Part shown: positions 30,091 through 63,443 of the stretch, in pieces
Layout: each line of letters begins with the position of its first letter
Numbering within the stretch: the first letter of the stretch is position 1
DNA from: Pseudofrankia sp. DC12
GTDB lineage: Bacteria > Actinomycetota > Actinomycetes > Frankiales > Frankiaceae
Assembly (NCBI RefSeq): GCF_000966285.1
Contig: NZ_KQ031391.1
Location: 1,095,238-1,159,237, forward strand
Reading direction: 5' to 3'
DNA length: 64,000 nucleotides
Program-made: the position numbers and the translations under genes
The notes under the pieces: generated by a model
The model's database searches: none
Seen by the model: the letters and a program-made list of their open reading frames with translations, nothing else
What the model was told of the DNA's origin: nothing

Positions 30091-30492
30091 CTACGACGGT
30101 TCGATGGCGAGGACGCCTGGAAGATCCGCGAACCGCGCCTTCGCGTCGCTGCTCACGATCACCCGGTCGGTCTCGGCGGCATGAGACGCGATGATCAGAT
30201 CGTGCGCCCCCCGCGGTCGCCCGCTTCTGCGGGCCCAGGCGAGCAGGCGGGCGTGATGCACCGCCGTGCTCTCCGTGTAGGCCAGCACTTCCAGGTTCGG
30301 CATCATCGCCGCCAAGGTTCGAGCCCGGTCCGTGGCACGCGGCGCGGTGCTGGCCAGTTCGATACCCACGCGATACTCCGCCAGAGTGACGCCCGCGATG
30401 GCGATCTCGTCGTCGTCCAGGGCCGCACGATCGATGACTCGGCGTTCGTAATCAATCAGGAGATTTGTGTCCAGGATCAGGCGTCTGCCCAC
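30091..30492 (-). CDS. VapC-type PIN-domain toxin
   Basis: A 133-residue PIN ribonuclease. Acidic residues in LDTNLLIDYE, GVTLAEYRVG, GAHDLIIASHA and SSDAKARFADLPGV form the Mg2+ site. VapC toxins cut specific RNAs, often tRNA or 23S rRNA. The GTG start at 30492 lies inside the antitoxin gene (16-base overlap), so the two are translationally linked. Target RNA not predictable. Confidence 0.9.
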   Translation of the reverse strand: MGRRLILDTNLLIDYERRVIDRAALDDDEIAIAGVTLAEYRVGIELASTAPRATDRARTLAAMMPNLEVLAYTESTAVHHARLLAWARRSGRPRGAHDLIIASHAAETDRVIVSSDAKARFADLPGVLAIEPS

Positions 30493-30725
30493 GGGTCACC
30501 CTCATACGGCCTGAGCAGGGCGATCGCGGCGGCGATGCTCTCCTGGAACGCGTCGTCCGGCGGCGTCGTACCAGCCAGCGCGGCGTCCAGGTCCGCGCCG
30601 GTCCGACGACGCGCCGGCCCGATCTCGGCGATCCGACGGTTCCCGCGCGTGATCGTGATGGTCTCGCCGGCCTCGACCGCATCCAGCAGGTCCGAGAACC
30701 GCCGCGATGCCTCGGTCGCCGTCAT
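30477..30725 (-). CDS. Phd/YefM-type antitoxin
   Basis: An 82-residue antitoxin partner of the VapC toxin. The N-terminal fold (MTATEASRRFSDLLDAVEAG, then ETITITRGNRRIAEIGPARR) is standard Phd/YefM DNA-binding; the acidic tail (PYEGDPWADA) would fit the toxin. Start 30725 has GAGG five bases upstream; ATG 30734 is an alternative, and the long frame to 31049 is not supported. A 7-3-7 palindrome upstream is the probable autorepression operator. Confidence 0.87.
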   Translation of the reverse strand: MTATEASRRFSDLLDAVEAGETITITRGNRRIAEIGPARRRTGADLDAALAGTTPPDDAFQESIAAAIALLRPYEGDPWADA

Positions 30726-30746
30726 GGTCCTCATGAGGGCCAGTGT

Positions 30747-30763
30747 AATCTGACAATCAGATT
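30747..30763. promoter_or_regulatory. Palindromic operator of the Phd/VapC pair
   Basis: AATCTGA and TCAGATT are perfect inverted repeats around CAA, 21 bases upstream of the antitoxin start. A+T-rich in a G+C-rich context. Expected binding site for the Phd-type antitoxin or the Phd-VapC complex. Confidence 0.7.
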
Positions 30764-31079
30764 CGACGCCTGCACCGCCCGCACCGCCCGGATCGTGGAG
30801 CAGGGCACGCAGGGCCGCAACATGATCAGGCGGCACCTGCGGCAACAGGACGTATTCGCCCCACAGGACAGGGCCCACCGGCTCCGACGTGGTCCCGCGT
30901 GGCAGCCCAGCCGTGCACCTGATCCGCCATCGCGGTCCTCGTCCGGCGCGGCCCCAGCATCCGTCCAGCCCAGCCACAGCGATCCCTCCGCTCCATCGCA
31001 AGCGAGCCCTACCCAGCCAGGGCTGCTCGGTCGGACACTGACGACTCAACCACTGTCCGAGCAGACAGTATCAGGCCGG

Positions 31080-32057
31080 TCATCCCCGTCCAAAGCGATC
31101 TGCGTGCCTGAGACAGAGCCCGGTCGTCGCCAGAGCCTGTGGCTGGTTCTCAGGGGTGCGCGGAGGCGGGTGGCGGCCCGCGGTGTCGGCGGTGAGGGCG
31201 ATGGTGGCGGTACGCAGGGCGGCGCCGACGTGGGCGGCCTCGGCGCCGGTGAGGTCGGCGTCGAACCCGCGCAGCGAGAGGATCAGCGCCACCTCGCCAT
31301 GGGCGTCGAAGGCGGCGGCCGAGAGCGAGTCGACCCGGTAGGTGGCCGCCGGGTCGAGCTCGCCGGCAACGAAGTCGGCCGGGTGCGGGAGGTGGGCGGC
31401 GAGCTCACACAGCAGCGCGGGTAGCTGGGCCCGCAGGTTGGCCGCGGCGGCCGCGCCCACCTGGCGGCGGATGCGCTCGTCGAGGGAGGCCGCGAGCTCC
31501 ACGGAGTACCCGCGGGCGCGGATGACGGGGAGGATCTCGCGGTACTGCGCGCGGTCGGCGGCGTCCTGCGCGCCGCGGTCCAGCCAGGCATCGACGACGG
31601 CGTCGGGCTGCCAGGCCATGAATGTGGCGCCGAGCGGCGGGTGGAACGGGATGCGGTCGCCGACCCGCAGTGTCGCGACCGGGCGCGGGCCGTGTGGGTC
31701 GACGACGAGGTGCGCGACGGTCGCGTACTCGACGGCCGGGACGAGCGCGACGACGGACAGGCCGAGCCGGCGGTGCAGGTCGGCCATCAGGGCACGCCCG
31801 GCGGACAGCGCGTCGGTTCCCGCGGCGGCGGCCTGGCCGGCGGCGATCAGGCCGGGTCCCAGCGCGTAGGTGCGCCGGGTCGGGTGGCGGCGCAGCCAGC
31901 CGGCGCGCTCCAGGGCGGCGAGCGTCGGGTAGCAGGTCGCGGGCGTCGCGTCGAGCCGCCGGGCGATCTCCGATTGACTCAGGCCGCCGGCCGCGCCGGC
32001 GAGCATCTCGACGACCGCGACGACCCGGTCGGTCTGCGGCGACGGGCGGGACGACAT
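31080..32057 (-). CDS. IclR-family regulator
   Basis: A 325-residue regulator. N-terminal winged helix (about residues 8-70): VVAVVEMLAGAAGGLSQSEI, ARRLDATPATCYPTLAALER, LGPGLIAAG. The C-terminal effector domain has the PFHPPLGATFMAWQ segment where IclR proteins bind small carboxylates or aromatics. ATG 32057 is used; the frame opens to 32156. It is divergent from the amidohydrolase operon with an IclR-like palindrome between, so it very likely controls that operon and itself. There is an 80-residue C-terminal extension rich in Ala and Pro. Confidence 0.87.
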   Translation of the reverse strand: MSSRPSPQTDRVVAVVEMLAGAAGGLSQSEIARRLDATPATCYPTLAALERAGWLRRHPTRRTYALGPGLIAAGQAAAAGTDALSAGRALMADLHRRLGLSVVALVPAVEYATVAHLVVDPHGPRPVATLRVGDRIPFHPPLGATFMAWQPDAVVDAWLDRGAQDAADRAQYREILPVIRARGYSVELAASLDERIRRQVGAAAAANLRAQLPALLCELAAHLPHPADFVAGELDPAATYRVDSLSAAAFDAHGEVALILSLRGFDADLTGAEAAHVGAALRTATIALTADTAGRHPPPRTPENQPQALATTGLCLRHADRFGRG

Positions 32058-32080
32058 GCGCCGCACTCTAGTCGCACGAT

Positions 32081-32095
32081 TTTGCATAGTGCAAA
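32081..32095. promoter_or_regulatory. Candidate IclR operator
   Basis: TTTGCA and TGCAAA are perfect inverted repeats separated by TAG. A related half site (TTTATGCAAGG) follows at about 32108 and a TTGACA-like hexamer at 32098-32103. It lies between the divergent iclR and amidohydrolase genes, 24 bases from the iclR start. IclR operators are typically 15-bp palindromes like this. Confidence 0.65.
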
Positions 32096-32191
32096 CATTG
32101 ACACGCTTTATGCAAGGAGGTTCCCTGATCGGGCGGCGGACAGGGCCCGCCGTCACGCCGATGCGGCCGGCCGAGCCGGAGGGACATCCCC

Positions 32192-33487
32192 ATGCCCAAC
32201 CCCGAAAGCGCGCATGACACCAGCGCGTACGTCGTCATCTCGTCCGACAGCCACGCGGGATTACCCACCGAGCAGTACCGGGACTATCTGGAGAAGGAGT
32301 TCCACCCGGCATTCGACGAGTTCCTCGCCGGCCGCCCGGCCGCGGTCGAGGAGATCCGCCGCAGGGGCGTGACCGACGAGAAGTTCGCGCGGAAATGGTT
32401 CACCGAGAACGCCGAAGGCCTGGAGGGCGGCTGGGAGGCGGGGCGGCGCAACAAGGAGATGGACGCCGACGGTATCTGCGCCGAGATCATCTTCCCGGAC
32501 GCGGACGCCGTGGAAAGCCGTACCTGCGCGCCGTTCGGCACCGGGCTTGGGCTTTCCGGTGACCTCGACCCGGCGCTCGGCCTCGCGGGTGCCCGGGCGC
32601 ACAACCGCTGGCTCGCCGAGCTGTGCGCCGGCTCGCCGCAGCGCCGTCGCGGGGTCGCGCTGGTGCAGATCACGGCCCCGCTGGACGACGTGCTGGCCGA
32701 GATCCGCCGGGCCCACGAATCGGGACTGCGGGCCGTGATGATCCCGGCGATGTGGATGAGCCAGGAGCCGTACCACGACCGGCGCTACGACCCGGTCTGG
32801 GCGCTGTGCCAGGACCTGGAGATGCCGGTGCTGACCCATTCCGGCCCGGCGGACAAGGAGAGCTACGGCGACCACCTGGGCATCTACGTCACCGAGGTGA
32901 CCTGGTGGCCGGCCCGCCCGATGTGGTTCCTGCTCTGGTCGGGCGTGTTCGAACGATTCCCCCGGCTGCGGTTCGGCGTCGCCGAGGCGGGCTGCTGGTG
33001 GGTGGCGAACCTGCTGTGGTTCTGGGACCGGCTGTACCTCGGTTCGAAGGGTGCGGAGAAGCTCGGCTCGCTCGGCGACCTGACGATGGCCCCGAGCGAC
33101 TGTTTCGACCGGAACATCTTCATCTGCTCGTCGAACACCAAGCGGCGCGAGATCGGGATGCGCTACGAGATCGGCGTCGACAACATGCTCTGGGGAAACG
33201 ACTTCCCGCACCCCGAGGGCACCTGGCCACGGTCGCGCGAATGGCTGAAGAAGACCTTCCACGACGTGCCGGTCGACGAGACCCGCCGGATGCTCGGCGC
33301 GGCCGCGGCCGAGGTCTTCGGGTTTGACCTCGACGAGCTGCGGCCCATCGCCGACCGGCTCGCGGTCACCCCGGAGAGCCTCGGCCAGACCGACGACGCG
33401 GCCAATATCGCCAGCTGGGCTCGCGCGAAAGCCGCGGGCCGGCACTGGCTGACCGGCGACGACCTGCCGATGGGGGTCGCCGAATGA
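32192..33487 (+). CDS. Amidohydrolase-2 family metal hydrolase or decarboxylase
   Basis: A 431-residue TIM-barrel enzyme of the amidohydrolase-2 group (ACMSD/gamma-resorcylate decarboxylase relatives). Metal-site motifs: SSDSHAGL near the N-terminus, LTHSGPA in the middle, and WGNDFPHPEGTWP near the C-terminus. First gene of a three-gene operon behind an IclR regulator. The second gene is its paralogue, so a heteromeric enzyme or two successive steps are possible. Substrate unknown; a carboxylated aromatic or cyclic acid fits the family and regulator. Confidence 0.82.
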   Translation: MPNPESAHDTSAYVVISSDSHAGLPTEQYRDYLEKEFHPAFDEFLAGRPAAVEEIRRRGVTDEKFARKWFTENAEGLEGGWEAGRRNKEMDADGICAEIIFPDADAVESRTCAPFGTGLGLSGDLDPALGLAGARAHNRWLAELCAGSPQRRRGVALVQITAPLDDVLAEIRRAHESGLRAVMIPAMWMSQEPYHDRRYDPVWALCQDLEMPVLTHSGPADKESYGDHLGIYVTEVTWWPARPMWFLLWSGVFERFPRLRFGVAEAGCWWVANLLWFWDRLYLGSKGAEKLGSLGDLTMAPSDCFDRNIFICSSNTKRREIGMRYEIGVDNMLWGNDFPHPEGTWPRSREWLKKTFHDVPVDETRRMLGAAAAEVFGFDLDELRPIADRLAVTPESLGQTDDAANIASWARAKAAGRHWLTGDDLPMGVAE

Positions 33488-34740
33488 GTGGGACGCGGCT
33501 CGCGCCCGACGACCGGTACGTCGTCATCTCCGCCGACTGCCACGGGGGCGGCAGCATTCTCGGCTACCGCCCGTACCTGGAGAAGCGCTTCCTCGACGAC
33601 TTCGACGCCTGGGCCCGCGACTACGTCAACCCGTACTCGGACCTCGAAGGCGACCTCGGCCCGCGAAACTGGGACTCGTCCCGGCGGCTGGCCGACCTGG
33701 AGGCCGACGGCATCGTCGCCGAGGTGATCTACCCCAACACGGTGCCGCCGTTCTACCCGAACAGCTCCCTGGTCGAGCAGCCGCCGGCGCCGAACTCCGG
33801 CGACCTGGACCGGCGCTGGGCCGGCCTGCGCGCCCACAACCGGTGGATGGCCGACTTCTGCGCCGCCGCCCCGGGCCGGCGCGCCGGGATCGCGCAGATC
33901 ATGCTGCACGACGTGGCCGCGGCCGTCGCCGAGGTGCGGTGGGCCAAGGAGAACGGGCTGACCGGCGGGGTGCTGCTGCCGGGGGCGCCGCCCGGGTCGG
34001 GGGTGCCGGCGCTCTACGACCCCGAGTACTACGAGCCGCTGTGGGCGGTCTGCGCCGAGCTGGACCTGCCGGTCAACCACCACGCCGGATCGGCCGCGCC
34101 GCCGGCCGGCGAACGCGCCGAGGACAAGGTGATTCTCCTGCTGGAGGTCACCTGGTGGGCGCACCGGGCCTTCTCACACCTGCTGGTCGGCGGGGTGCTC
34201 GAGCGCCACCCCGGGCTGCGGCTGATCCTGGCCGAGCAGGGCACCGCGTGGATCCCGGCCGAGCTGGCCCGGCTCGACTACTTCTTCGACCGGATGGGCA
34301 CCGACCGGTCCGGCTCGCAGGAGGCCGTCTGGGGCCAGGAGCTCGTCGGCCGGATGTCGTGCACGCCGAGTGAGTACTTCGCCCGGCAGGTGTCGATCGG
34401 CGCGAGCTTCATCCGGGGCCACGAGATGCCGGCCGCGAGCCAGGTCGGCTTCGGCAAGATCATGTGGGGCAGCGACTACCCACACCGGGAGGGCAGCCAC
34501 CCGTTCTCGCGGGAGGCGCTGCGGGCCGCGTTCGCCGGCGTCGACCCGGTCGACGTCGAGCGGATGCTCGCGACGAACGCCGCCGCCGCGTACGGCTTCG
34601 ACCTCGACGCGCTGCGGCCGGTCGCCGACCGGTGCGGCCCGACCGTCGCCGAGATCGCCGAGCCGCTGAAACCCGCGTCCCTGCCGGCCGAGGCCGAGCA
34701 GTGTCCGGCCCTGATCGGCTACGGCACCCCCGCCAACTGA
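33484..34740 (+). CDS. Second amidohydrolase-2 family enzyme
   Basis: A 418-residue paralogue of the preceding gene. It keeps the same landmarks in the same order: SADCHGGG, VNHHAGSA, WGSDYPHREGSHPF and the tail FDLDALRPVADR (compare FDLDELRPIADR upstream). The start overlaps the upstream stop (ATGA), so the pair is co-translated in fixed ratio. Differences in the active-site loop (HHAG against HSGP) suggest distinct substrates or division of labour. Family and metal dependence by similarity; reaction unknown. Confidence 0.82.
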   Translation: MSGTRLAPDDRYVVISADCHGGGSILGYRPYLEKRFLDDFDAWARDYVNPYSDLEGDLGPRNWDSSRRLADLEADGIVAEVIYPNTVPPFYPNSSLVEQPPAPNSGDLDRRWAGLRAHNRWMADFCAAAPGRRAGIAQIMLHDVAAAVAEVRWAKENGLTGGVLLPGAPPGSGVPALYDPEYYEPLWAVCAELDLPVNHHAGSAAPPAGERAEDKVILLLEVTWWAHRAFSHLLVGGVLERHPGLRLILAEQGTAWIPAELARLDYFFDRMGTDRSGSQEAVWGQELVGRMSCTPSEYFARQVSIGASFIRGHEMPAASQVGFGKIMWGSDYPHREGSHPFSREALRAAFAGVDPVDVERMLATNAAAAYGFDLDALRPVADRCGPTVAEIAEPLKPASLPAEAEQCPALIGYGTPAN

Positions 34741-34799
34741 TCCACCCCGTCCGTGACGACCAGGTCCCAGGACGATCGCGATCCCCAGGAGGAGACGCC

Positions 34800-35597
34800 G
34801 TGGCCACCCGCATCCGATATGGCGCCCGCACCCCCGAGCAGCTGCGCAACCGCGAGGTCGAGGCGACCTCCGTCGGCACCTGGGCGACCTCGCTGGTCGC
34901 GATCTACGAGACCGACCCCGCGCTCGTCGCGGCCGTCTTACCCCCTCCGCTGGTGGCGTCCGTGCCGGAGCACGTCCGGGTCACGATCGCGCGGGTCGAC
35001 ATCCGCGACCTGCCGCCGTTCGGCGCCGGCACGTTCGCCGTCGGCGCCGGCCACGACGGGATCACCGGCGACTACGCGCTGACGATGCCGATGTCCACCG
35101 AACAGTCCGTCATCGGCGGCCGGGAGACGTTCGGCGAACCCAAGAAGATCGCCGGCGTCCGCCTGGACCTTGACGGCGAGCTCGCCGTCGGCACGCGGCT
35201 GACCGGCTCGTTCGCCCGGCTCGGCGTCACCTATGTCGAGATCGACGGGAGGCTCGTCGAGGCGCTGCCGCTGCCCGCCGACCGGGTGCGCACCAGCTTC
35301 TATCTGAAGTTCCAGCCCGCCCCGGACGGCAAGGGCTTCGACGACGACCCCGGCCTGGTGCACGTCCAGCGCCGGGAGAAGACCCGCGCGCTGTTCAGGG
35401 TCGACGGCGAGGTCATCCTGCGAGAGTCCCGGTTCGACCCGGTCGCGGACCTGCCGGTCCGTCGCCTCGTCGGGATCGAGATCGCCGAGCGGTCCAGCGT
35501 CCAGACCGGCGCGATCGTGCGCCGCCTGCCACAGGAGGACGTCATCCCGTTCGCGCACCAGCGTTACGACAACCTGTCCCCCGTCGGCGAGGAGTAG
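34800..35597 (+). CDS. Acetoacetate-decarboxylase-like protein
   Basis: A 265-residue protein of the ADC superfamily, GTG start with AGGAGG upstream. The segment GGRETFGEPKKIAG contains the lysine position that forms the Schiff base in acetoacetate decarboxylase. ADC-like proteins also catalyse aldol or hydration reactions. As third gene of the amidohydrolase operon it could decarboxylate or rearrange a beta-keto acid made by those enzymes. The role in the pathway is inferred. Confidence 0.78.
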   Translation: MATRIRYGARTPEQLRNREVEATSVGTWATSLVAIYETDPALVAAVLPPPLVASVPEHVRVTIARVDIRDLPPFGAGTFAVGAGHDGITGDYALTMPMSTEQSVIGGRETFGEPKKIAGVRLDLDGELAVGTRLTGSFARLGVTYVEIDGRLVEALPLPADRVRTSFYLKFQPAPDGKGFDDDPGLVHVQRREKTRALFRVDGEVILRESRFDPVADLPVRRLVGIEIAERSSVQTGAIVRRLPQEDVIPFAHQRYDNLSPVGEE

Positions 35598-57154: not shown

Positions 57155-57988
57155 TCAGGCCACCGCTTCCTCGCCGACGAGGGTGGTGCGGTGCATGAGC
57201 CGGCGAGACAGAGCGGTGTAGGGCTGTGCTCGGTGCAGGATGCCCGTGTTGTCCCAGATGACGAGGTCGCCCGGCGTCCAGTGGTGGCGCAGGGAGAAGC
57301 GCGGCTGGGTGGCCCAGCCGAGGAGCCGGTCGAGCAGCGCGCGGCTCTCGTCCTCCGGCCAGCCGACGAGGTGGTCGGCCGTCGCCCCGACCAGCAGCGA
57401 CTTGCGCCCGTTGCGCCGGGTCCAGACCAGCGGGTGCTCCCGCGAGGGAACCTTCTCCCAGCTGGCACGCACCTTGGCCGACGCGTCCGGGTGGGCCAGC
57501 CGCTGGGTGGCCGCGAAGCTGTGGACCACGCGCAGCTCGGCGTACCGGGCCTTGTCCTCGGCGGACAGCGAGTCGTAGGCGGCGTAGAGGTTGGCGAACT
57601 CGGTGTCGCCGCCTTCGGTCGCGACCTCCAACGCGGTCAGCAGGGTCGCCTTCTGCGGCACCAGGTCGTTCGCGCCGTCGATGTGCCAGTAGAAGGTGCC
57701 CGTCCGATAGGCCGCCAGGGCGCTCTGGGCGGGGTCGAGGGAGATCGCCGAGACCTCCGGGAACTCCTCCTCGCCGCCCATCGGAGCGACGACCACCTCA
57801 CCGAGCAGCCGGCTGAGCGCGACGAGGTCGGCGTCGCCGATGTGCGCCTCGCGGTAGATGACGACGCCGTGCTCGTCGAGGTACCTGAGGGTGTCGGCGG
57901 CGACGGCCGGGTCCGCCAGCTGGTGGCCGGCAAGGCCCGTGACCGCGACGCCTACCTCGGCGCTGATCGGGCTGACGGTGACGGACAT
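57155..57988 (-). CDS. TauD/TfdA-family 2-oxoglutarate dioxygenase
   Basis: A 277-residue Fe(II)/2-oxoglutarate-dependent dioxygenase. Iron ligands: His102 and Asp104 in FYWHIDGAN, distal His252 in TGILHRAQPY; Arg267 (SRRLMHRTTL) would bind 2-oxoglutarate. The substrate in TauD/TfdA is a sulfonate or aryloxy acid; here unknown, but the neighbours suggest an organic pollutant- or plant-derived acid. Leftward block with CMD-like and Rieske genes. Confidence 0.9.
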   Translation of the reverse strand: MSVTVSPISAEVGVAVTGLAGHQLADPAVAADTLRYLDEHGVVIYREAHIGDADLVALSRLLGEVVVAPMGGEEEFPEVSAISLDPAQSALAAYRTGTFYWHIDGANDLVPQKATLLTALEVATEGGDTEFANLYAAYDSLSAEDKARYAELRVVHSFAATQRLAHPDASAKVRASWEKVPSREHPLVWTRRNGRKSLLVGATADHLVGWPEDESRALLDRLLGWATQPRFSLRHHWTPGDLVIWDNTGILHRAQPYTALSRRLMHRTTLVGEEAVA

Positions 57989-58027
57989 CGGAGGCTCCCG
58001 TCGGATCGGGGCGCGGGGCGCGCCCGC

Positions 58028-58624
58028 TCAGGCTGTCGGCGACTGGCGGCGGGCGACGGCCTCGCGCATGTCGTCGTCGATCTCGATGTCGAACGAACGG
58101 ATCATGTAGGCGAGCGTCTCGTAGGCGCCAACCGTGAAGATCACGTCCAGGATCTGCTTGACCTCAAGCTCCTTGACCAGAACCGCCCAGGTCTCGTCGC
58201 CGATCTTGCCATCACCGACCAGCTCGTCCACCGCGCGCAGCATCGCCGCGTCCAGCGGGTCCCACAACGGCGCGTCCGGCCCGAGCGCGATCCGCTGGAT
58301 CTCCTCATCCGAAAGGCCCGCGTCGCGGGCGATGAAGGTGTGCTGCAACCACTCATAGCCCGCCTGGCGCTGCGCGGCGACCCGCAACACGATCAGCTCC
58401 CGCTGCCGGCCGGTCAGCGTGCTCGTCGACAGGATGTGCCCGTTGAACGTGAAAAACGCCTGCGAAAGGGTCGTGTGGTACGCGAACACCCCAAGCGTGT
58501 TCAACGCCTTCGAGCGACCCTCCGGCGACAGCCTCGCCGGGGTACCCGGCGGCTCCAGCGCGGCCAGCACCTGCCGCATCTCCTTCGGCCACTGCTTGAG
58601 CGGAAGCGGCTCGATGCGTGCCAT
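58028..58624 (-). CDS. Carboxymuconolactone-decarboxylase-like protein
   Basis: A 198-residue helical protein of the CMD/AhpD fold: GVFAYHTTLSQAFFTFNGHI, LTGRQRELIVLRVAAQRQAG and YEWLQHTFIARDAGLSDEEI. The CxxC thiol motif of AhpD peroxidases is absent (AQRQAGYEWLQH), so it is of the CMD-like, non-peroxidase kind. The start ATG 58624 has GGGGACG. Beside TauD and Rieske genes, it may perform a decarboxylation/isomerisation step. Confidence 0.86.
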   Translation of the reverse strand: MARIEPLPLKQWPKEMRQVLAALEPPGTPARLSPEGRSKALNTLGVFAYHTTLSQAFFTFNGHILSTSTLTGRQRELIVLRVAAQRQAGYEWLQHTFIARDAGLSDEEIQRIALGPDAPLWDPLDAAMLRAVDELVGDGKIGDETWAVLVKELEVKQILDVIFTVGAYETLAYMIRSFDIEIDDDMREAVARRQSPTA

Positions 58625-58946
58625 GCGACGTCCCCTTTGCCATGATCGGTGGACAGCGGCGCCGTGTGCGGCGGTCTGGGCGGTTTGTGAGGCGACCGGT
58701 CAGTCCAGTCTTTCGCGCTCCCGCGTCGACGTGCCATCGATCGGCCAGGTCACCCACATGCCAATGCCGGCGGTTCCGCGTCGACGGGGCTGGTCTACGC
58801 GGAACCGCCGGCACCGGTCGGGCCGGTTGCTTGACCCGGGCGGCCGGACGTCGGTGGCGGCGCCGGGTCGGGGGCCAGCCCACCCGGCGACGTCCACAGC
58901 GACGCGGCCAGCACCGGCCCACAGGGGCCAGTGGTCGACTCGGACG
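58625..58946. other. 322-bp gap with long hairpin
   Basis: No gene recognised. The only strong structure is a 17-bp perfect inverted repeat (58765-58813). It separates the Rieske/small-protein unit from the CMD/TauD unit, both leftward. Confidence 0.65.
58765..58813. terminator. 17-bp perfect inverted repeat
   Basis: TGCCGGCGGTTCCGCGT at 58765-58781 and its exact complement at 58797-58813 enclose a 15-base loop. Very stable hairpin without U-tract, 134 bases downstream of the small-protein stop. Candidate transcription terminator, or a REP-like palindrome. Confidence 0.6.
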
Positions 58947-59273
58947 TCAGACCGCGGGAGCGAAGACGTTCGAGATGTGCGCGGCGCCGGCGTCCGGCAC
59001 CCGCGGCTGGTGCCAGGCCTCGACCGAGAACGAGACGCTGCACAGCGAGTAGTAGACGAGCAGCAGGTTGTACGCATCCTCGGGCAGCTCCTCCAGCGGG
59101 AACCTGTTCAGGTACGCGATCGCGTCCTGGATCCGCGGGAGAGCGGCGTCGTAGAACGCCTGCAGGTCGTCCATCTTGGCCGCGTAGCGCTTCGCGAACC
59201 GCTCGTCCTCCGTCGGGAGGGCCCAGTCGGCGAAGGGCTCCAGATCCGCGAAGTCCGCGGGCAGGGTAGCCAC
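58947..59273 (-). CDS. Small protein paired with Rieske oxygenase
   Basis: A 108-residue acidic protein starting MATLPADFADLEPFADWALP, with helical RYAAKMDDLQAFYDAALPRI and a tail ending VFAPAV. Not a recognised family. It follows the Rieske gene by 28 bases on the same strand, so an accessory or coupling role is likely; the size is too small for a classical beta subunit (about 180 residues). Coding character is strong. Confidence 0.75.
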   Translation of the reverse strand: MATLPADFADLEPFADWALPTEDERFAKRYAAKMDDLQAFYDAALPRIQDAIAYLNRFPLEELPEDAYNLLLVYYSLCSVSFSVEAWHQPRVPDAGAAHISNVFAPAV

Positions 59274-59301
59274 GGGTGTCTCCCCTCTTTGAGCGGGCGG
59301 G

Positions 59302-60585
59302 TCAGACCAGCGCCGGCGACGGCGTGGCGCCGGGGGTGCTCTTCACGAACTCCGCGCAGAAGGCGCGCGCGGTCTGGTGCAGGTGACGCAGCAGGATCTC
59401 CTGGTCGTTCAGCGGGAACTCGCTGACCGCCCGGGACTCCAGCATGGTCTGGGTCGCCTCGAGGGTGTTCGCGTCCTGCAGGCCGTACTCCTTGAACGTC
59501 GCGGCCGCCATCTCCTGGCGGAGCCGCTCAAGGGCGTCCTTCGGCGGCGCGAAGTACAGCGCGGCCTCGAAGGTGTGCGAGTTCACCGACGTCGGCCAGT
59601 AGTGGTACGTGAGGTACCAGCCCGGCTCCCAGACCAGAATCATGAAGTTCGGGAAGAAGACGAACGAGTCGACGCCCCACGCCTTGTGCCGGGCCGGGTT
59701 CAGGCCGGGCGGCAGCGTGATGTCGAACGGCTTGTCCCACGGGCCGAACAGGCCGGTGCGCAGCTCCCGCTCGATCGGCTTGACCATCCTCGGGTCCTTC
59801 GGCGGGGACATGCCGCCCCAGCTGGAGACCATCGAGTGCGGGCCGTCGATCTTGTAGTACAGCGCCTCGTAGCCGTACTGCTGCAGCTTGCGGGACTCCT
59901 CCGCCGTCGCCTGGCGGTTGTGCAGCACCGGCGCGTGGTAGAACTCCGCGAACGCGTCGATGAACAGCTTCCAGTTGGCGCCGATCTCGGACTTGTACTT
60001 GAAGACCGAGGTCATCTCGCCCCACGGGTAGCCGACGAGGTCGGCGGCCAGCGGCCCGAGGTAGTCGGCAAGGGACTGGGTGCCGTCCTTGTCGAAGTTG
60101 ATGAAGATGAAGCCTTCCCAGATGTCCAGGCGGACGTCGGCGAGGCTGTACTTCGCCTTGTCCAGGTCGAAGAACTCCGACTCCTGCTGGACGAAGGTGC
60201 AGGCGCCGCCGAGGTCGTAACGCCAGGCGTGGTACTTGCAGATGAACTGCCGCGCCGTGCCCGAGGTCTCCTCGCGCGGGTAGTCCTGCCAGACCAGCTT
60301 GTTGCCACGGTGCCGGCAGACGTTGTGGAACGCCTTGATGCCGTCAGCGGTCCGCACGATGATCACCGAGGACCGGGCGGCGTCGATCTCCTTGGTGAAG
60401 TAGCTGCCCACCTTGGGGAGCCGCTCGACCCTGCCGACGTTCAGCCACGTCTTTCCGAAGACCGCCTTGCGCTCGAGCTCGTAGTGCTCGGGCGAGATCG
60501 AGTCCTCGTAGGAGGCATCCGCCGTGCTCAGGCCGGGATAGTGCGCCGTCCAGCTGCCCTCAGCTGGCTTCGGGAAGTGAGCCAT
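59302..60585 (-). CDS. Rieske-type aromatic-ring-hydroxylating oxygenase, alpha subunit
   Basis: A 427-residue oxygenase. Rieske [2Fe-2S] ligands: Cys90-x-His92 (VCRHRGN) and Cys116-x2-His119 (ICKYHAW). Mononuclear iron region: NWKLFIDAFAEFYHAPVLH (His217, His222 with the following acidic residue). The first conserved lead EVYELE-like start and RNVCRHRGN fit the family. Electron donors are not encoded next door, unless the CoxS/CoxM-type proteins serve. Overlapping palindromes lie just upstream. Confidence 0.9.
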   Translation of the reverse strand: MAHFPKPAEGSWTAHYPGLSTADASYEDSISPEHYELERKAVFGKTWLNVGRVERLPKVGSYFTKEIDAARSSVIIVRTADGIKAFHNVCRHRGNKLVWQDYPREETSGTARQFICKYHAWRYDLGGACTFVQQESEFFDLDKAKYSLADVRLDIWEGFIFINFDKDGTQSLADYLGPLAADLVGYPWGEMTSVFKYKSEIGANWKLFIDAFAEFYHAPVLHNRQATAEESRKLQQYGYEALYYKIDGPHSMVSSWGGMSPPKDPRMVKPIERELRTGLFGPWDKPFDITLPPGLNPARHKAWGVDSFVFFPNFMILVWEPGWYLTYHYWPTSVNSHTFEAALYFAPPKDALERLRQEMAAATFKEYGLQDANTLEATQTMLESRAVSEFPLNDQEILLRHLHQTARAFCAEFVKSTPGATPSPALV

Positions 60586-60628
60586 GTTGTGCGGTTCCTT
60601 TCCGTACCCGGACAGAGGCCCATGATAG

Positions 60629-60661
60629 CAATCCTCTCTAGGATTGAGAAGAACGTTCTCA
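60629..60661. promoter_or_regulatory. Overlapping palindromes upstream of Rieske gene
   Basis: CAATCCT and AGGATTG are perfect inverted repeats around CTCT (60629-60646). A second, TGAGAA and TTCTCA around GAACG (60645-60661), follows and contains the core AGAACGTTCT. Located 44 bases upstream of the Rieske start. Candidate operator and promoter for the Rieske unit. Confidence 0.62.
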
Positions 60662-60862
60662 CCTGACGAGTGTCGGACTCAAGCGAAGCCACGGAGTGCC
60701 GCGGCACCGGGACGCAGAACACACAGGACGCCGGCCACGGGCCGGGGGTGGGAGCTGGCCACAGGCCCGGCCCCACACCGCCACGGTCGGCTGCCGACAG
60801 GCATGGCCCAACGTCGACGGACCGGTAGGGCGCCCGCCGACGGTTGGCCTGCTCGCCGTCGG

Positions 60863-61342
60863 CTAAGCCGGCGCGGTCGCCGTCGCGGCCTGGCGCACGG
60901 CGGCGATGATGCCCTGGTAGCCGGTGCAGCGGCAGAAGTTGCCGGAGAGGCCCTCGCGGATCTGCTCGTCGGTCGGGGCCGGGCTGTCCCGCAGCAGCGC
61001 CGTGATCGAGACGACGAAGCCCGGGGTGCAGAAGCCGCACTGCAGGCCGTGGCAGTCACGCATCGCCGCCTGCACCGGGGAAAGCGTCCCGTCGGGGGCG
61101 GCGATGCCCTCCACGGTCGTCACGTCGAGCCCGTCGGTCTGGACGGCGAACATGAGGCACGAGCGGACGGCGGCGCCCTCGACCAGGACCGTGCAGGCAC
61201 CGCAGGCGCCATGCTCGCAGCCGAGATGGGTGCCCGTCAGGCCGCAGCGCTCGCGCAGGAAGTCGGCCAGGGTCATCCGGGGCTCGGCGAGGTTCTCGAC
61301 CGCCTGGCCGTTGACCGTGAGGCGGACCGGCAGCTCAGCCAT
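60863..61342 (-). CDS. CoxS-type [2Fe-2S] subunit of a molybdenum hydroxylase
   Basis: A 159-residue iron-sulfur protein carrying two [2Fe-2S] clusters. Cluster ligands: Cys42, 47, 50 (LGCEHGACGACTVLVEG) and Cys62; then Cys102, 105 (LQCGFCTPGFV) and Cys137, 139 (NFCRCTGYQGI). This is the small subunit of xanthine dehydrogenase/CO dehydrogenase-type enzymes. It overlaps the FAD subunit gene by eight bases. The large molybdopterin subunit is not found in the window. Confidence 0.93.
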   Translation of the reverse strand: MAELPVRLTVNGQAVENLAEPRMTLADFLRERCGLTGTHLGCEHGACGACTVLVEGAAVRSCLMFAVQTDGLDVTTVEGIAAPDGTLSPVQAAMRDCHGLQCGFCTPGFVVSITALLRDSPAPTDEQIREGLSGNFCRCTGYQGIIAAVRQAATATAPA

Positions 61343-62243
61343 GGACGGCTCCTCCGGCTCCGGCGGCCGCGCCGGCAGCCTCCTTGATCGCCGACGTCCA
61401 GGCCCGGGCGGCCATCGTCGCGCCGACCCGGGTCCGGTAGGCAGCCGAGCCTTGCAGATCGGCGGGGACGTCGTCCAGCTCGCTCATCGCGAGCGCCCCG
61501 AGCTCCGCCGCGTCCAGCGCGTCGACCCGCTGCCCGACGGCGGCCAGTTCGGCCCCCGCGGCACGCAACGGCACCGAGGCCATCCCCAGCAGGCCGATCG
61601 CGGCGCGCGCGACCCGGTCGTCGCCGTCCAGCTCGACCGCGACGGCGGCGCCGGCGATGGCGAAGTCACCCGACCGGCGGGCGAACTCCTCGACCGCGAA
61701 ACCAGCCCGGCCGGCCCGCACCGGGAACCGCACGGCGACGAGCATCTCGTCCGGTTCGAGCGCGGTGCTCCACAGGCCGGTGAAGAACTCGGCCCCTGGG
61801 ATCGTGCGCTCACCGCCCGCCGCCGAGGCGGCGATCATCTCCGCGTCGAGGGTGAGCACGACGGTCGGGTACTCCCCGGCCGGGTCGGCGTGCGCGACCG
61901 AGCCGCAGAGCGTGCCGCGGTTGCGGATCTGGAAGTGCCCGATGAGCGGCGTCGCCCGGGTCAGCAGCGGAACGGCACTCGCCACCGCCGCGTCGCGCCC
62001 CACCGCCGCCTCTGTCTCGCCGGCGCCGACCCGCAGCCAGCCGTCCGCCACGGTGATCCCCCGCAGCTCGGGCAGGCGCGCGATGTCGATCAGATGGTCG
62101 AAGTAGGCGAGGCGCAGTGCCAGCATCGGCACCAGGCTCTGCCCCCCGGCCAGCAGCTTGGCCTCATCGCCGAGCTCGGCGAGCAGCGCGAGCGCCGCCT
62201 CGACGGTCTCCGGTCGGTGGTACTCGAACGACGCCGACTTCAT
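61335..62243 (-). CDS. CoxM-type FAD-binding subunit of a molybdenum hydroxylase
   Basis: A 302-residue FAD subunit. FAD motif KLLAGGQSLVPMLALRLAYF at about residues 29-48 and QIRNRGTLCGSVAHADPAGE near 105-124 are diagnostic. Start 62243 is seven bases after the P450 stop on the same strand. Together with CoxS it would pass electrons from a missing molybdenum subunit, or act as a separate electron chain. Role in this operon is inferred. Confidence 0.93.
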   Translation of the reverse strand: MKSASFEYHRPETVEAALALLAELGDEAKLLAGGQSLVPMLALRLAYFDHLIDIARLPELRGITVADGWLRVGAGETEAAVGRDAAVASAVPLLTRATPLIGHFQIRNRGTLCGSVAHADPAGEYPTVVLTLDAEMIAASAAGGERTIPGAEFFTGLWSTALEPDEMLVAVRFPVRAGRAGFAVEEFARRSGDFAIAGAAVAVELDGDDRVARAAIGLLGMASVPLRAAGAELAAVGQRVDALDAAELGALAMSELDDVPADLQGSAAYRTRVGATMAARAWTSAIKEAAGAAAGAGGAVHG

Positions 62244-62249
62244 CGCGGC

Positions 62250-63443
62250 TCAGCCGATCGTGATGGGAAGGGATTCCCAGCCGCGGACGGTCGACGTCGA
62301 GGCCAGGTTGGCGTTGTCCCAGTCCACGTCCCAGCTGGGGAAGTGCTTGAGGATCTCCTCCAGCGCGACGCGGCCCTCGAGGCGGGCCAGCGCGGCGCCG
62401 AGGCAGTAGTGGCCGCCGAGCCCGAAGGTCAGCTGCTGGCCGATCTGGCGGCGGATGTCGAAGGTGTTCGGGTCTGGGTAACGAGCCGGGTCCCGGTTCG
62501 CGGCCGCGACGATGAACAGGATCGCCGAGCCCGCGGGGACCTGCTGGCCGTGGAACTCGACGTCGGTGGTGACGTAGCGGCCGATCGCGTGGCCGGGCGG
62601 CTCGAACCGAAGCAGCTCCTCGATCGCGTTCGGGATCAGCGACGGGTCGGCGACCAGCTCGGCGCGGGCCTCGGGGAACTTCGCGAGCGTCGAGGCCGCC
62701 CAGCCGATCAGCCGGCCCGTGGTCTCGTTGCCGGCGCCGGCGACGACGGTGACGTAGGTCAGGATCTCGTCGCGGGTGAGCGTCCGGGTGACGCCGTTCT
62801 CGTCGGTGAACTCGGCTCTCAGCAGCTCGGTCATCAGGTCGTCCGACGGGTGCTCGCGCCGCCAGTCGATGTACTCGCCGAAGACCTCGCCCGACAGCAG
62901 GGCGCCCTCGGAGAGATCCATCTGTCCGCCCTCCTCGGTGCGCAGCCGGTCGTTGCCGGCGTCGCGGATCCCCGCCTGGTCGGCCTCGGGAATGCCGAGC
63001 AGCATGCCGATGACGCGCATCGGGAACTCGATGGTGAAGGCCTTGCACATGTCGAACTGTTTTTCGCCGATCAGCGGATCGAGCGTGCGGACACAGAAAT
63101 CACGGACCTGCTGTTCGATCCCGAGGACCCGCTTCGGCGTGAAGACGCGGGACAGCAGCTTGCGGTGGATGTCGTGGGCCGGCGGGTCCTCGAAGATGAG
63201 GGTCCCGGGCGGCAGCTCCATGCCGGACTTGATGATTTCCAGGATGCCGCCCTTGGCGGACGAGAAGGTCCGCCAGTCCGGCAGGCCGCGCTCGATGTCG
63301 GAGAACCGGGTGACCGCGAAGAAGTCGTACTGCTCGTTGTAGTAGAGCGGGACCTCCTCGCGAAGCCGCTGGAAGATCGGGTACGGGTCCGCGGCGTAGG
63401 CCTGGGTGTAGGGATCCCAGGCAATCGCGGTGTCGGTCGTCAC
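62250..63443 (-). CDS. Cytochrome P450
   Basis: A 397-residue soluble bacterial P450. Heme-binding FGLGGHYCLGAALARLEG has the axial Cys347; the I-helix is VVAGAGNETTGRLIGWAAST; the EELLRFEPPG block carries the Glu/Arg region. Substrate not predictable, but steroid or terpenoid hydroxylation is common for this actinobacterial type. Same operon as CoxM and CoxS (spacings of 6 and -8 bases). No ferredoxin gene adjacent. Confidence 0.93.
   Translation of the reverse strand: MTTDTAIAWDPYTQAYAADPYPIFQRLREEVPLYYNEQYDFFAVTRFSDIERGLPDWRTFSSAKGGILEIIKSGMELPPGTLIFEDPPAHDIHRKLLSRVFTPKRVLGIEQQVRDFCVRTLDPLIGEKQFDMCKAFTIEFPMRVIGMLLGIPEADQAGIRDAGNDRLRTEEGGQMDLSEGALLSGEVFGEYIDWRREHPSDDLMTELLRAEFTDENGVTRTLTRDEILTYVTVVAGAGNETTGRLIGWAASTLAKFPEARAELVADPSLIPNAIEELLRFEPPGHAIGRYVTTDVEFHGQQVPAGSAILFIVAAANRDPARYPDPNTFDIRRQIGQQLTFGLGGHYCLGAALARLEGRVALEEILKHFPSWDVDWDNANLASTSTVRGWESLPITIG

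What the first reader, a model, noticed from the sequence alone, without database searches (positions are those of the whole stretch)
32057..35597. IclR-controlled module of two amidohydrolases and an ADC-like enzyme
Two co-translated paralogous amidohydrolase-2 proteins (ATGA overlap, shared FDLD-LRP tail but different active-site loops) plus an acetoacetate-decarboxylase-like protein sit behind a divergent IclR gene with a clear operator. The combination suggests a pathway that hydrolyses or decarboxylates a ring acid and then a beta-keto acid. I know no described pathway with this exact set.
Basis: partly seen in the sequence, partly recalled or inferred. Interest (0 to 1): 0.72.

Follow-up and report, generated by a model that had tools for sequence, protein, structure and literature searches.

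The report
Paired amidohydrolase-fold oxygenase operon, IclR-controlled
Two neighbouring genes that would be labelled "amidohydrolase" most likely encode oxygen-using metal enzymes, and with a decarboxylase-like partner they form an unstudied oxidative gene set found in many actinobacteria.

Summary
In detail: iclR (31080-32057, minus) diverges from AHA (32192-33487), AHB (33484-34740, ATGA overlap) and an ADC-family gene (34800-35597). The interpretation changes. Both "amidohydrolases" carry the seven-residue ligand set of amidohydrolase-related dinuclear oxygenases (PtmU3, AibH2), identical in 61 of 61 aligned AHA/AHB rows. PtmU3 and DitZ are their best PDB matches. They are predicted oxygenases, not hydrolases or decarboxylases. 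AHB lies on the same strand within 1.9 kb of AHA in 80 of 80 named loci fetched by AHA alone; in a 296-genome sample orthologues of both occur in the same 24 genomes, always close. ADC (71 of 80) and an SDR missing from this operon (70 of 80) complete the module. In 8 sister operons a KshA-type Rieske oxygenase is present and AHB absent. The IclR site TYGCATANTGCRA occurs in 14 of 14 iclR intergenic regions from two genera and nowhere in 1.43 Mb of 75 loci outside the genus. Best reading: oxidative catabolism of an acid by C-H hydroxylation, SDR oxidation and decarboxylation. Substrate and chemistry are unproven.

The parts
31080..32057 (-). iclR: IclR-type regulator (325 aa, start ATG at 32057), divergent
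   Evidence: HTH_IclR 37.5 bits, cut-off 22; IclR_C below cut-off; 7 of 7 other genomes of the genus; 33-38% identical divergent homologue in 6 of 6 loci of a second genus
32081..32095 (.). palindromic operator TTTGCATAGTGCAAA (core TYGCATANTGCRA at 32082-32094); second half site at 32109-32115
   Evidence: core present in 14 of 14 iclR intergenic regions (8 Pseudofrankia-clade genomes, 6 of a second genus) and 0 times in 1.43 Mb of 75 loci outside the genus; two exact copies in 6.88 Mb
32192..33487 (+). AHA: PF04909 protein, predicted dinuclear-metal oxygenase; ligands D19 H21 H216 E265 D337 H340 E342
33484..34740 (+). AHB: PF04909 paralogue, predicted dinuclear-metal oxygenase; ligands D18 H20 H200 E251 D331 H334 E336; ATGA overlap with AHA
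34800..35597 (+). ADC-like protein (PF06314, 265 aa, GTG start); candidate Schiff-base lysine in GEPKK (K115/K116)

Best explanation
The operon encodes an IclR-regulated oxidative catabolic unit. AHA and AHB are amidohydrolase-fold oxygenases, each with a dinuclear (Fe/Fe or Mn/Fe) site, which use O2 and electrons from a general cellular donor to hydroxylate C-H bonds of an organic acid or its CoA ester. An SDR (in the operon in most relatives, unlinked here) oxidises the new alcohol to a ketone. The ADC-like lysine enzyme then cleaves the beta-keto acid through a Schiff base, releasing CO2. The second oxygenase acts at another position or step, the place filled by a KshA-type Rieske oxygenase in sister operons. 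Shown by sequence: the genes, invariant ligand sets, strict pairing of orthologues, module composition, shared operator. Inferred: oxygenase activity, metal, electron donor, order of steps, IclR binding and its sign, substrate class (polycyclic or terpenoid-like acid is only a lean).
For: The ligand positions of AibH2/PtmU3 (passages; LynB7 equivalents) are present in both proteins, in 61 of 61 rows at identical columns. PtmU3 and DitZ are the top PDB profile hits (AHA 3.5e-32 and 7.5e-24; AHB 4.9e-39 and 9.3e-33; next best 4e-14 and 4e-17). Foldseek ranks 1-11 for AHB and 1-6 for AHA are PtmU3, DitZ, SfbO, TruffO or AibH1H2 chains. In the tree AHA (100/99) and AHB (100/97) are clades within a 65-row group holding PtmU3, DitZ and SfbO, apart from LigW (100/98). 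AHB within 1.9 kb and on the same strand as AHA in 80 of 80 loci: 66 side by side, 14 with ADC and/or SDR between; 24 of 24 genomes. ADC in 71 of 80, SDR in 70 of 80 by tblastn plus one called ORF in L167. In 8 of 8 sister operons fetched a Rieske/KshA_C oxygenase is present and AHB absent. CoA genes beside some modules: AMP ligase (L110), type III CoA-transferase (L172), enoyl-CoA hydratase (L077).
Against: No ferredoxin or reductase gene was found in the unit: a motif scan within 6 kb in 97 type I loci (some the same genome twice) gave one real-looking Rieske protein, about 3 kb away in L074; the other 43 loci with a hit show Cys-rich stretches in ORFs on the opposite strand. The four AROs of PMC10811679 were found through such genes. 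Ligands alone do not prove O2 chemistry: 10 further paralogues of this genome carry a full set ending in Glu or Asp. Fold similarity hardly separates oxygenases from decarboxylases (query TM-scores 0.52-0.67 among the top 50 for both kinds). The ADC-like protein lacks acidic residues of solved ADCs in two stretches. The SDR is not linked in this genus. No substrate evidence exists.
Confidence: 0.6

Rival explanations
1. One reading: AHA and AHB are ordinary metal-dependent PF04909 hydrolases or non-oxidative decarboxylases acting on a ring acid, followed by ADC.
For: Characterised PF04909 enzymes more commonly hold one zinc and are non-redox (passage in PMC10401708); gamma-resorcylate, 5-carboxyvanillate and 2,3-dihydroxybenzoate decarboxylases also match; an MFS transporter lies beside two modules of the second genus (L169, L171).
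Against: Own-genome paralogues without the oxygenase pattern (6 of 18 aligned) all have His at the fourth ligand position and neither His nor acid at the sixth and seventh; AHA and AHB have Glu, His, Glu there. Decarboxylases score far lower than PtmU3.
Confidence: 0.17
2. AibH1H2-like heteromer: AHA and AHB form one heteromeric oxygenase in which only one subunit is catalytic.
For: ATGA coupling, strict pairing of orthologues, precedent of 28%-identical AibH1 and AibH2 in an alpha2alpha'2 complex (passages); AHA and AHB of this genome are 38-39% identical.
Against: Both subunits keep every ligand including the acidic one that mononuclear AibH1 lacks. Type II AHA homologues and lone AHB-like proteins exist without the other. 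Complex formation could not be tested.
Confidence: 0.3
3. The ADC-like protein is not a decarboxylase but another Schiff-base enzyme (aldolase or dehydratase type), so the pathway ends in C-C cleavage or dehydration.
For: Far below the NCBIfam ADC cut-off (38.5 against 150 bits); acidic residues of solved ADCs in two aligned stretches are replaced. That non-decarboxylating ADC-fold enzymes exist is recalled (MppR); the one search made for this gave nothing of use.
Against: The lysine pair in GEPKK is invariant in 19 of 19 type I rows and in the 5 type II rows aligned, so carbonyl chemistry is likely; decarboxylation is the commonest activity known to me for the fold (recalled).
Confidence: 0.35

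Closest known systems
PtmU3 (platensimycin/platencin nonheme diiron monooxygenase, PDB 6omp)
   Same: Same fold family; first or second PDB match of both proteins; the metal ligands and a Glu equivalent to E313. Acts on diterpenoid-CoA intermediates (passage).
   Different: Single protein in a biosynthetic cluster; 22% (AHA) and 26% (AHB) identity in the fold alignments; separate branch in the tree; no ADC or SDR module known to me.
DitZ of Rhodococcus rhodochrous (PDB 8uyr)
   Same: First or second PDB match; acidic residue at the E342 position in the printed alignment.
   Different: Falls in another clade with own-genome paralogues L188, L190, L191; no paper on it appeared in the listings, so its reaction is unknown to me.
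AibH1H2 2-aminoisobutyrate hydroxylase
   Same: Two adjacent paralogous PF04909 subunits; dinuclear ligand set in AibH2 (passages).
   Different: AibH1 is mononuclear and lacks the acidic residue; the aib cluster has ferredoxin and reductase genes; here both subunits are complete and no redox gene was found in the unit.
LynB7/BarH oxidative decarboxylase
   Same: PtmU3-like enzyme shown to decarboxylate oxidatively with Fe2+ and O2 (passages), a precedent for coupling O2 chemistry to CO2 loss.
   Different: Single protein in a polyketide-peptide cluster.
KshA-type Rieske oxygenase operons (type II, L078-L084, L174)
   Same: AHA homologue plus SDR in 8 of 8, ADC in 7 of 8.
   Different: Rieske/KshA_C oxygenase present and AHB absent; MaoC-region, ChsH2-like, thiolase-like or AMP-ligase genes near L078 or L079.

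Membership tests
Amidohydrolase-related dinuclear oxygenases (AROs) | PF04909 domain | tested here: met
   77.0 and 106.3 bits, cut-off 26.4
Amidohydrolase-related dinuclear oxygenases (AROs) | six metal ligands of AibH2 plus acidic seventh | tested here: met
   DHHEDHE in 61 of 61 rows; reference residues
Amidohydrolase-related dinuclear oxygenases (AROs) | groups with proven AROs, away from mononuclear members | tested here: met
   PDB rows were partial stretches on long branches, the program warned of long branches meeting, and the root is a midpoint, so the exact place is unsure
Amidohydrolase-related dinuclear oxygenases (AROs) | Rieske ferredoxin or reductase gene in the unit (the discovery criterion of PMC10811679, not a feature of every member: the nine-gene lynB list names none) | tested here: not met
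Amidohydrolase-related dinuclear oxygenases (AROs) | bound dinuclear Fe or Mn/Fe site and O2-dependent hydroxylation | not testable with these tools
   needs purified protein; I therefore call the proteins ARO-like, predicted
AibH1H2-type heteromer | partner subunit mononuclear, acidic residue missing | tested here: not met
   both subunits complete
AibH1H2-type heteromer | physical alpha2alpha'2 complex | not testable with these tools
   only single chains could be folded
Mononuclear PF04909 decarboxylase/hydrolase | no second-metal ligands (His and acid after the D..H motif) | tested here: not met
   H340/E342 and H334/E336 present in all rows
Acetoacetate decarboxylase | PF06314 fold family and Schiff-base lysine | tested here: met
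   the role of the lysine is recalled
Acetoacetate decarboxylase | NCBIfam PRK02265 cut-off | tested here: not met
   38.5 bits, cut-off 150
Acetoacetate decarboxylase | acidic active-site partners (Glu61 and Glu76 of the clostridial enzyme, recalled) | tested here: inconclusive
   Glu positions of 3bgt in the YEF and SES stretches are not acidic in the profile; which Glu is which was not verified
IclR regulator | HTH_IclR domain | tested here: met
   37.5 bits, cut-off 22
IclR regulator | IclR_C effector domain | tested here: not met
   20.2 bits, cut-off 24; divergent C-terminal part

The most novel reading that the evidence does not exclude
AHA and AHB form a two-centre oxygenase in which both amidohydrolase-fold subunits hold a catalytic dinuclear site. 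It drives an undescribed O2-dependent chain-shortening route (hydroxylate, oxidise, decarboxylate) widespread in Streptomyces and other actinobacteria, in which a dinuclear oxygenase (AHB) and a KshA-type Rieske oxygenase replace one another between sister operons.
Probability: 0.25. Interest if true: 0.78.

Novelty: new variant of a known kind. Interest (0 to 1): 0.6.

Why it matters
Amidohydrolase-fold oxygenases are a young enzyme class with very few described members. One published search found new ones through Rieske neighbours; type I units have none in the operon, so that route would miss them. A second published search went by ligands (555 proteins; passage) and may hold relatives of AHA or AHB; I could not check. 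This module offers a strictly conserved pair with two complete metal sites, a named set of partner enzymes, a regulator with a defined operator, and a natural swap with a Rieske oxygenase, which makes the pathway testable in laboratory Streptomyces. It also warns that many proteins annotated "amidohydrolase family" may be oxygenases: 12 of the 20 PF04909 proteins of this genome that could be aligned (24 hits in all) have the seven-ligand pattern.

Tried and rejected
Rejected: hydrolase/decarboxylase reading (ligands, tree). Rejected: strict AibH1H2 analogue (both sites complete). Rejected: the regex Rieske hits next to Streptomyces-type modules (42 loci with 69-115-aa Cys-rich ORFs and L124 with a 393-aa ORF, all on the opposite strand). 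Rejected: the unlinked SDR being under the same operator (no site near G000:6035596). It remains the candidate partner: it is 72% identical to the SDR that lies divergently beside AHA-AHB in L104. Led nowhere: literature on DitZ and on ADC-fold relatives; papers joining ADC, amidohydrolase and SDR, IclR or Frankia (empty); with Rieske/steroid/operon, 7 listings, none holding both ADC and amidohydrolase by the printed counts.

Identity limits of 57% (AHA) and 53% (AHB) were set after seeing the gap in the lists; below them, G064 (51%), G208 and G255 (43-44%) have AHB-like genes without an AHA orthologue. Type II: 8 of the 9 loci seen were fetched (that of G007:C732 was not). L069-L075 and L089-L093 partly come from the same genomes. 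SDR of L167 was missed by tblastn but is a called ORF. Three of 20 paralogue loci gave no scored ORF and one of 24 hits was not fetched. The control pattern is given only for up to one mismatch, not for exact matches. Neighbour names other than those scanned are by eye or by tblastn.
Full report
What is there. The window lies in a 6.88-Mb single-contig genome of the Pseudofrankia clade: relatives with 88-96% identical AHA are Frankia sp. AgB1.9, Frankia nepalensis, Pseudofrankia asymbiotica, Pseudofrankia sp. BMG5.36 and a Frankia MAG. iclR (31080-32057, minus) faces AHA (32192-33487), AHB (33484-34740) and an ADC-family gene (34800-35597). Pfam gives HTH_IclR, Amidohydro_2 twice and ADC above cut-offs. 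NCBIfam has no match to AHA or AHB at E 0.001, and the ADC-like protein stays far below the curated ADC cut-off.

Conservation. The order iclR<>AHA-AHB-ADC is the same in 7 of 7 other genomes of the genus. A scan of named genomes with an AHA profile kept the best 80 of 529 confirmed stretches. AHB lies on the same strand within 1.9 kb of AHA in 80 of 80 (66 side by side, 14 with module genes between), ADC in 71 and an SDR in 70 (71 with L167; one, L104, on the opposite strand). Orders: ADC-SDR-AHA-AHB 54, AHB-ADC-SDR-AHA 10, iclR-AHA-AHB-ADC 5, others 11. 48 of the 80 titles read Streptomyces; the rest include Catenulispora, Streptacidiphilus, Frankiales and Acidimicrobia-type MAGs. In an even sample of 296 genomes of the class, AHA orthologues (57% identity or more) occur in 24 genomes and AHB orthologues (53% or more) in the same 24, on one contig and strand and at most 1.8 kb apart. 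In the six g10 genomes of that sample with both, the unit is iclR<>SDR-ADC-AHB-AHA (6 of 6); two further g10 genomes have only a 43-44% AHB-like gene.

Operator. The core TYGCATANTGCRA occurs once in each of 14 iclR intergenic regions: 8 genomes of the genus before AHA, 6 of g10 before the SDR gene. It is absent from 1.43 Mb of 75 named loci outside the genus. Not all copies are perfect palindromes. In the whole genome two exact copies exist: this one, and one at 6060968 beside a truncated IclR-like reading frame with a P450 and an acyl-CoA-ligase-like gene. With one mismatch allowed there are 15 matches against 13 for the reversed control pattern, so weaker sites mean nothing. IclR binding and its sign are inferred.

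What the amidohydrolases are. AibH2 binds its metals with Asp25, His27, His211, Glu265, Asp337 and His340; an acid at 342 (Glu313 in PtmU3) is kept only in dinuclear members and is missing in mononuclear AibH1 (passages of PMC7782822). AHA has D19 H21 H216 E265 D337 H340 E342; AHB has D18 H20 H200 E251 D331 H334 E336. All are invariant in 31 AHA and 30 AHB rows, at the same columns in a joint alignment (61 of 61). Of 18 other PF04909 proteins of this genome aligned, 6 have the same string, 4 have Asp last, 2 have Thr last and 6 have other patterns; so the pattern marks an enzyme class that is common here and is not unique to the pair. PDB profile searches rank PtmU3 and DitZ first for both. 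AlphaFold models (pLDDT 77.5 for AHA with weak loops, 88.2 for AHB) have PtmU3, DitZ, TruffO/SfbO and AibH1H2 chains as their best Foldseek hits, but decarboxylases follow closely and TM-scores do not separate them. A 68-row tree makes AHA (100/99), AHB (100/97) and type II (100/100) single clades. The 51-row group of these with AHB-like paralogues (100/99) sits apart from PtmU3, DitZ and SfbO, yet on their side of the split from LigW (100/98). PDB rows were partial, branches long and the program warned of long branches meeting, so only the coarse split is used.

Partner genes and chemistry. The ADC-like protein keeps the GEPKK lysines in 19 of 19 rows and in 5 type II rows, but acidic residues of solved ADCs in two stretches are not kept. 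Six SDRs aligned have the Gly-rich and YxxxK motifs. The SDR is absent from the operon in this genus; all 8 genus genomes have a 49-52% identical SDR elsewhere, and the copy of this genome is 72% identical to one lying divergently beside AHA-AHB in L104. In 8 sister operons (L078-L084, L174; AHA homologue 44-49% identical) there are SDR (8 of 8), ADC (7 of 8) and a Rieske/KshA_C oxygenase (8 of 8 by tblastn; two scanned with Pfam), with no AHB. In the other loci searched with that Rieske protein only L074 gave a weak hit (31%), about 3 kb from the module. The simplest reading is that AHB does an oxygenase's work; a rival is that the Rieske protein feeds electrons to AHA. Some type I units have CoA-related neighbours: an AMP ligase by L110, a CoA-transferase by L172 and an enoyl-CoA hydratase by L077. 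ChsH2-like and thiolase-like genes lie near L078 and L079. With PtmU3 acting on diterpenoid-CoA (passage), this leans towards polycyclic or terpenoid-like acids, but no substrate is shown. The proposed sequence is hydroxylation (AHA and/or AHB), oxidation (SDR), Schiff-base decarboxylation (ADC-like). LynB7 shows that enzymes of this class can couple O2 chemistry to CO2 loss (passages).

Known or new. The class name comes from PMC10811679 (parts 1 and 2 of 3 of the text read), which found members through Rieske neighbours. Type I units have none in the operon. PMC10401708, PMC7782822, PMC10127204 and PMC12141560 were read as passages. No paper on this gene set came up in searches of an open-access library; most subscription journals are not covered. 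I file it as a new variant of a known kind: predicted ARO-like pair, both sites complete, with ADC and SDR partners.

Weight. Presence and pairing of the module: near certain. Oxygenase class for both proteins: about 0.75. Heteromer of any kind: about 0.5, of which 0.3 is the version with one catalytic subunit. Hydroxylate-oxidise-decarboxylate order: about 0.35. Substrate: unknown.

Noticed in passing
window 30091-31049, minus strand: PIN-domain protein (PF01850) and, just upstream, an ORF with a Phd/YefM antitoxin match barely over cut-off (30.4 against 29.8): a likely toxin-antitoxin pair next to iclR. The PIN protein is also near the module in two relatives, L069 and L070 (68-69%).
   Followed up: partly
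G000:C1:6060968 (L215:8969): Second exact copy of the IclR operator, beside a truncated IclR-like reading frame, an acyl-CoA-ligase-like gene (by eye) and a divergent P450; a one-mismatch copy lies 159 bases away.
   Followed up: partly
L078-L084, L174: Sister operons with KshA-type Rieske oxygenase, ADC, AHA homologue and SDR (L078 without ADC); near some of them AMP-ligase, thiolase-like, ChsH2-like and branched-chain ABC transporter genes: another set for which I know no description.
   Followed up: partly
whole genome G000: 24 PF04909 hits; 12 of the 20 proteins aligned carry the seven-ligand dinuclear pattern, so this genome may hold a dozen amidohydrolase-fold oxygenases.
   Followed up: partly
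L169 and L171 (genus g10): A TauD/TfdA-type dioxygenase, an MFS transporter and a second AHB-like gene flank the module, hinting at uptake and oxidation of an acid.
   Followed up: no
L115:12511-14247 and like places: In many Streptomyces loci a VIT1-like membrane protein (by eye) and a fatty-acid-hydroxylase-type gene (PF04116, scanned in L115) follow AHB; gene clusters seen in 32 and 41 of 82 loci.
   Followed up: no
window 57155-63443: Rieske-like, CoxS/CoxM-like and P450-like genes in one stretch (by eye from gene calls), a possible second oxidative cluster in the window.
   Followed up: no
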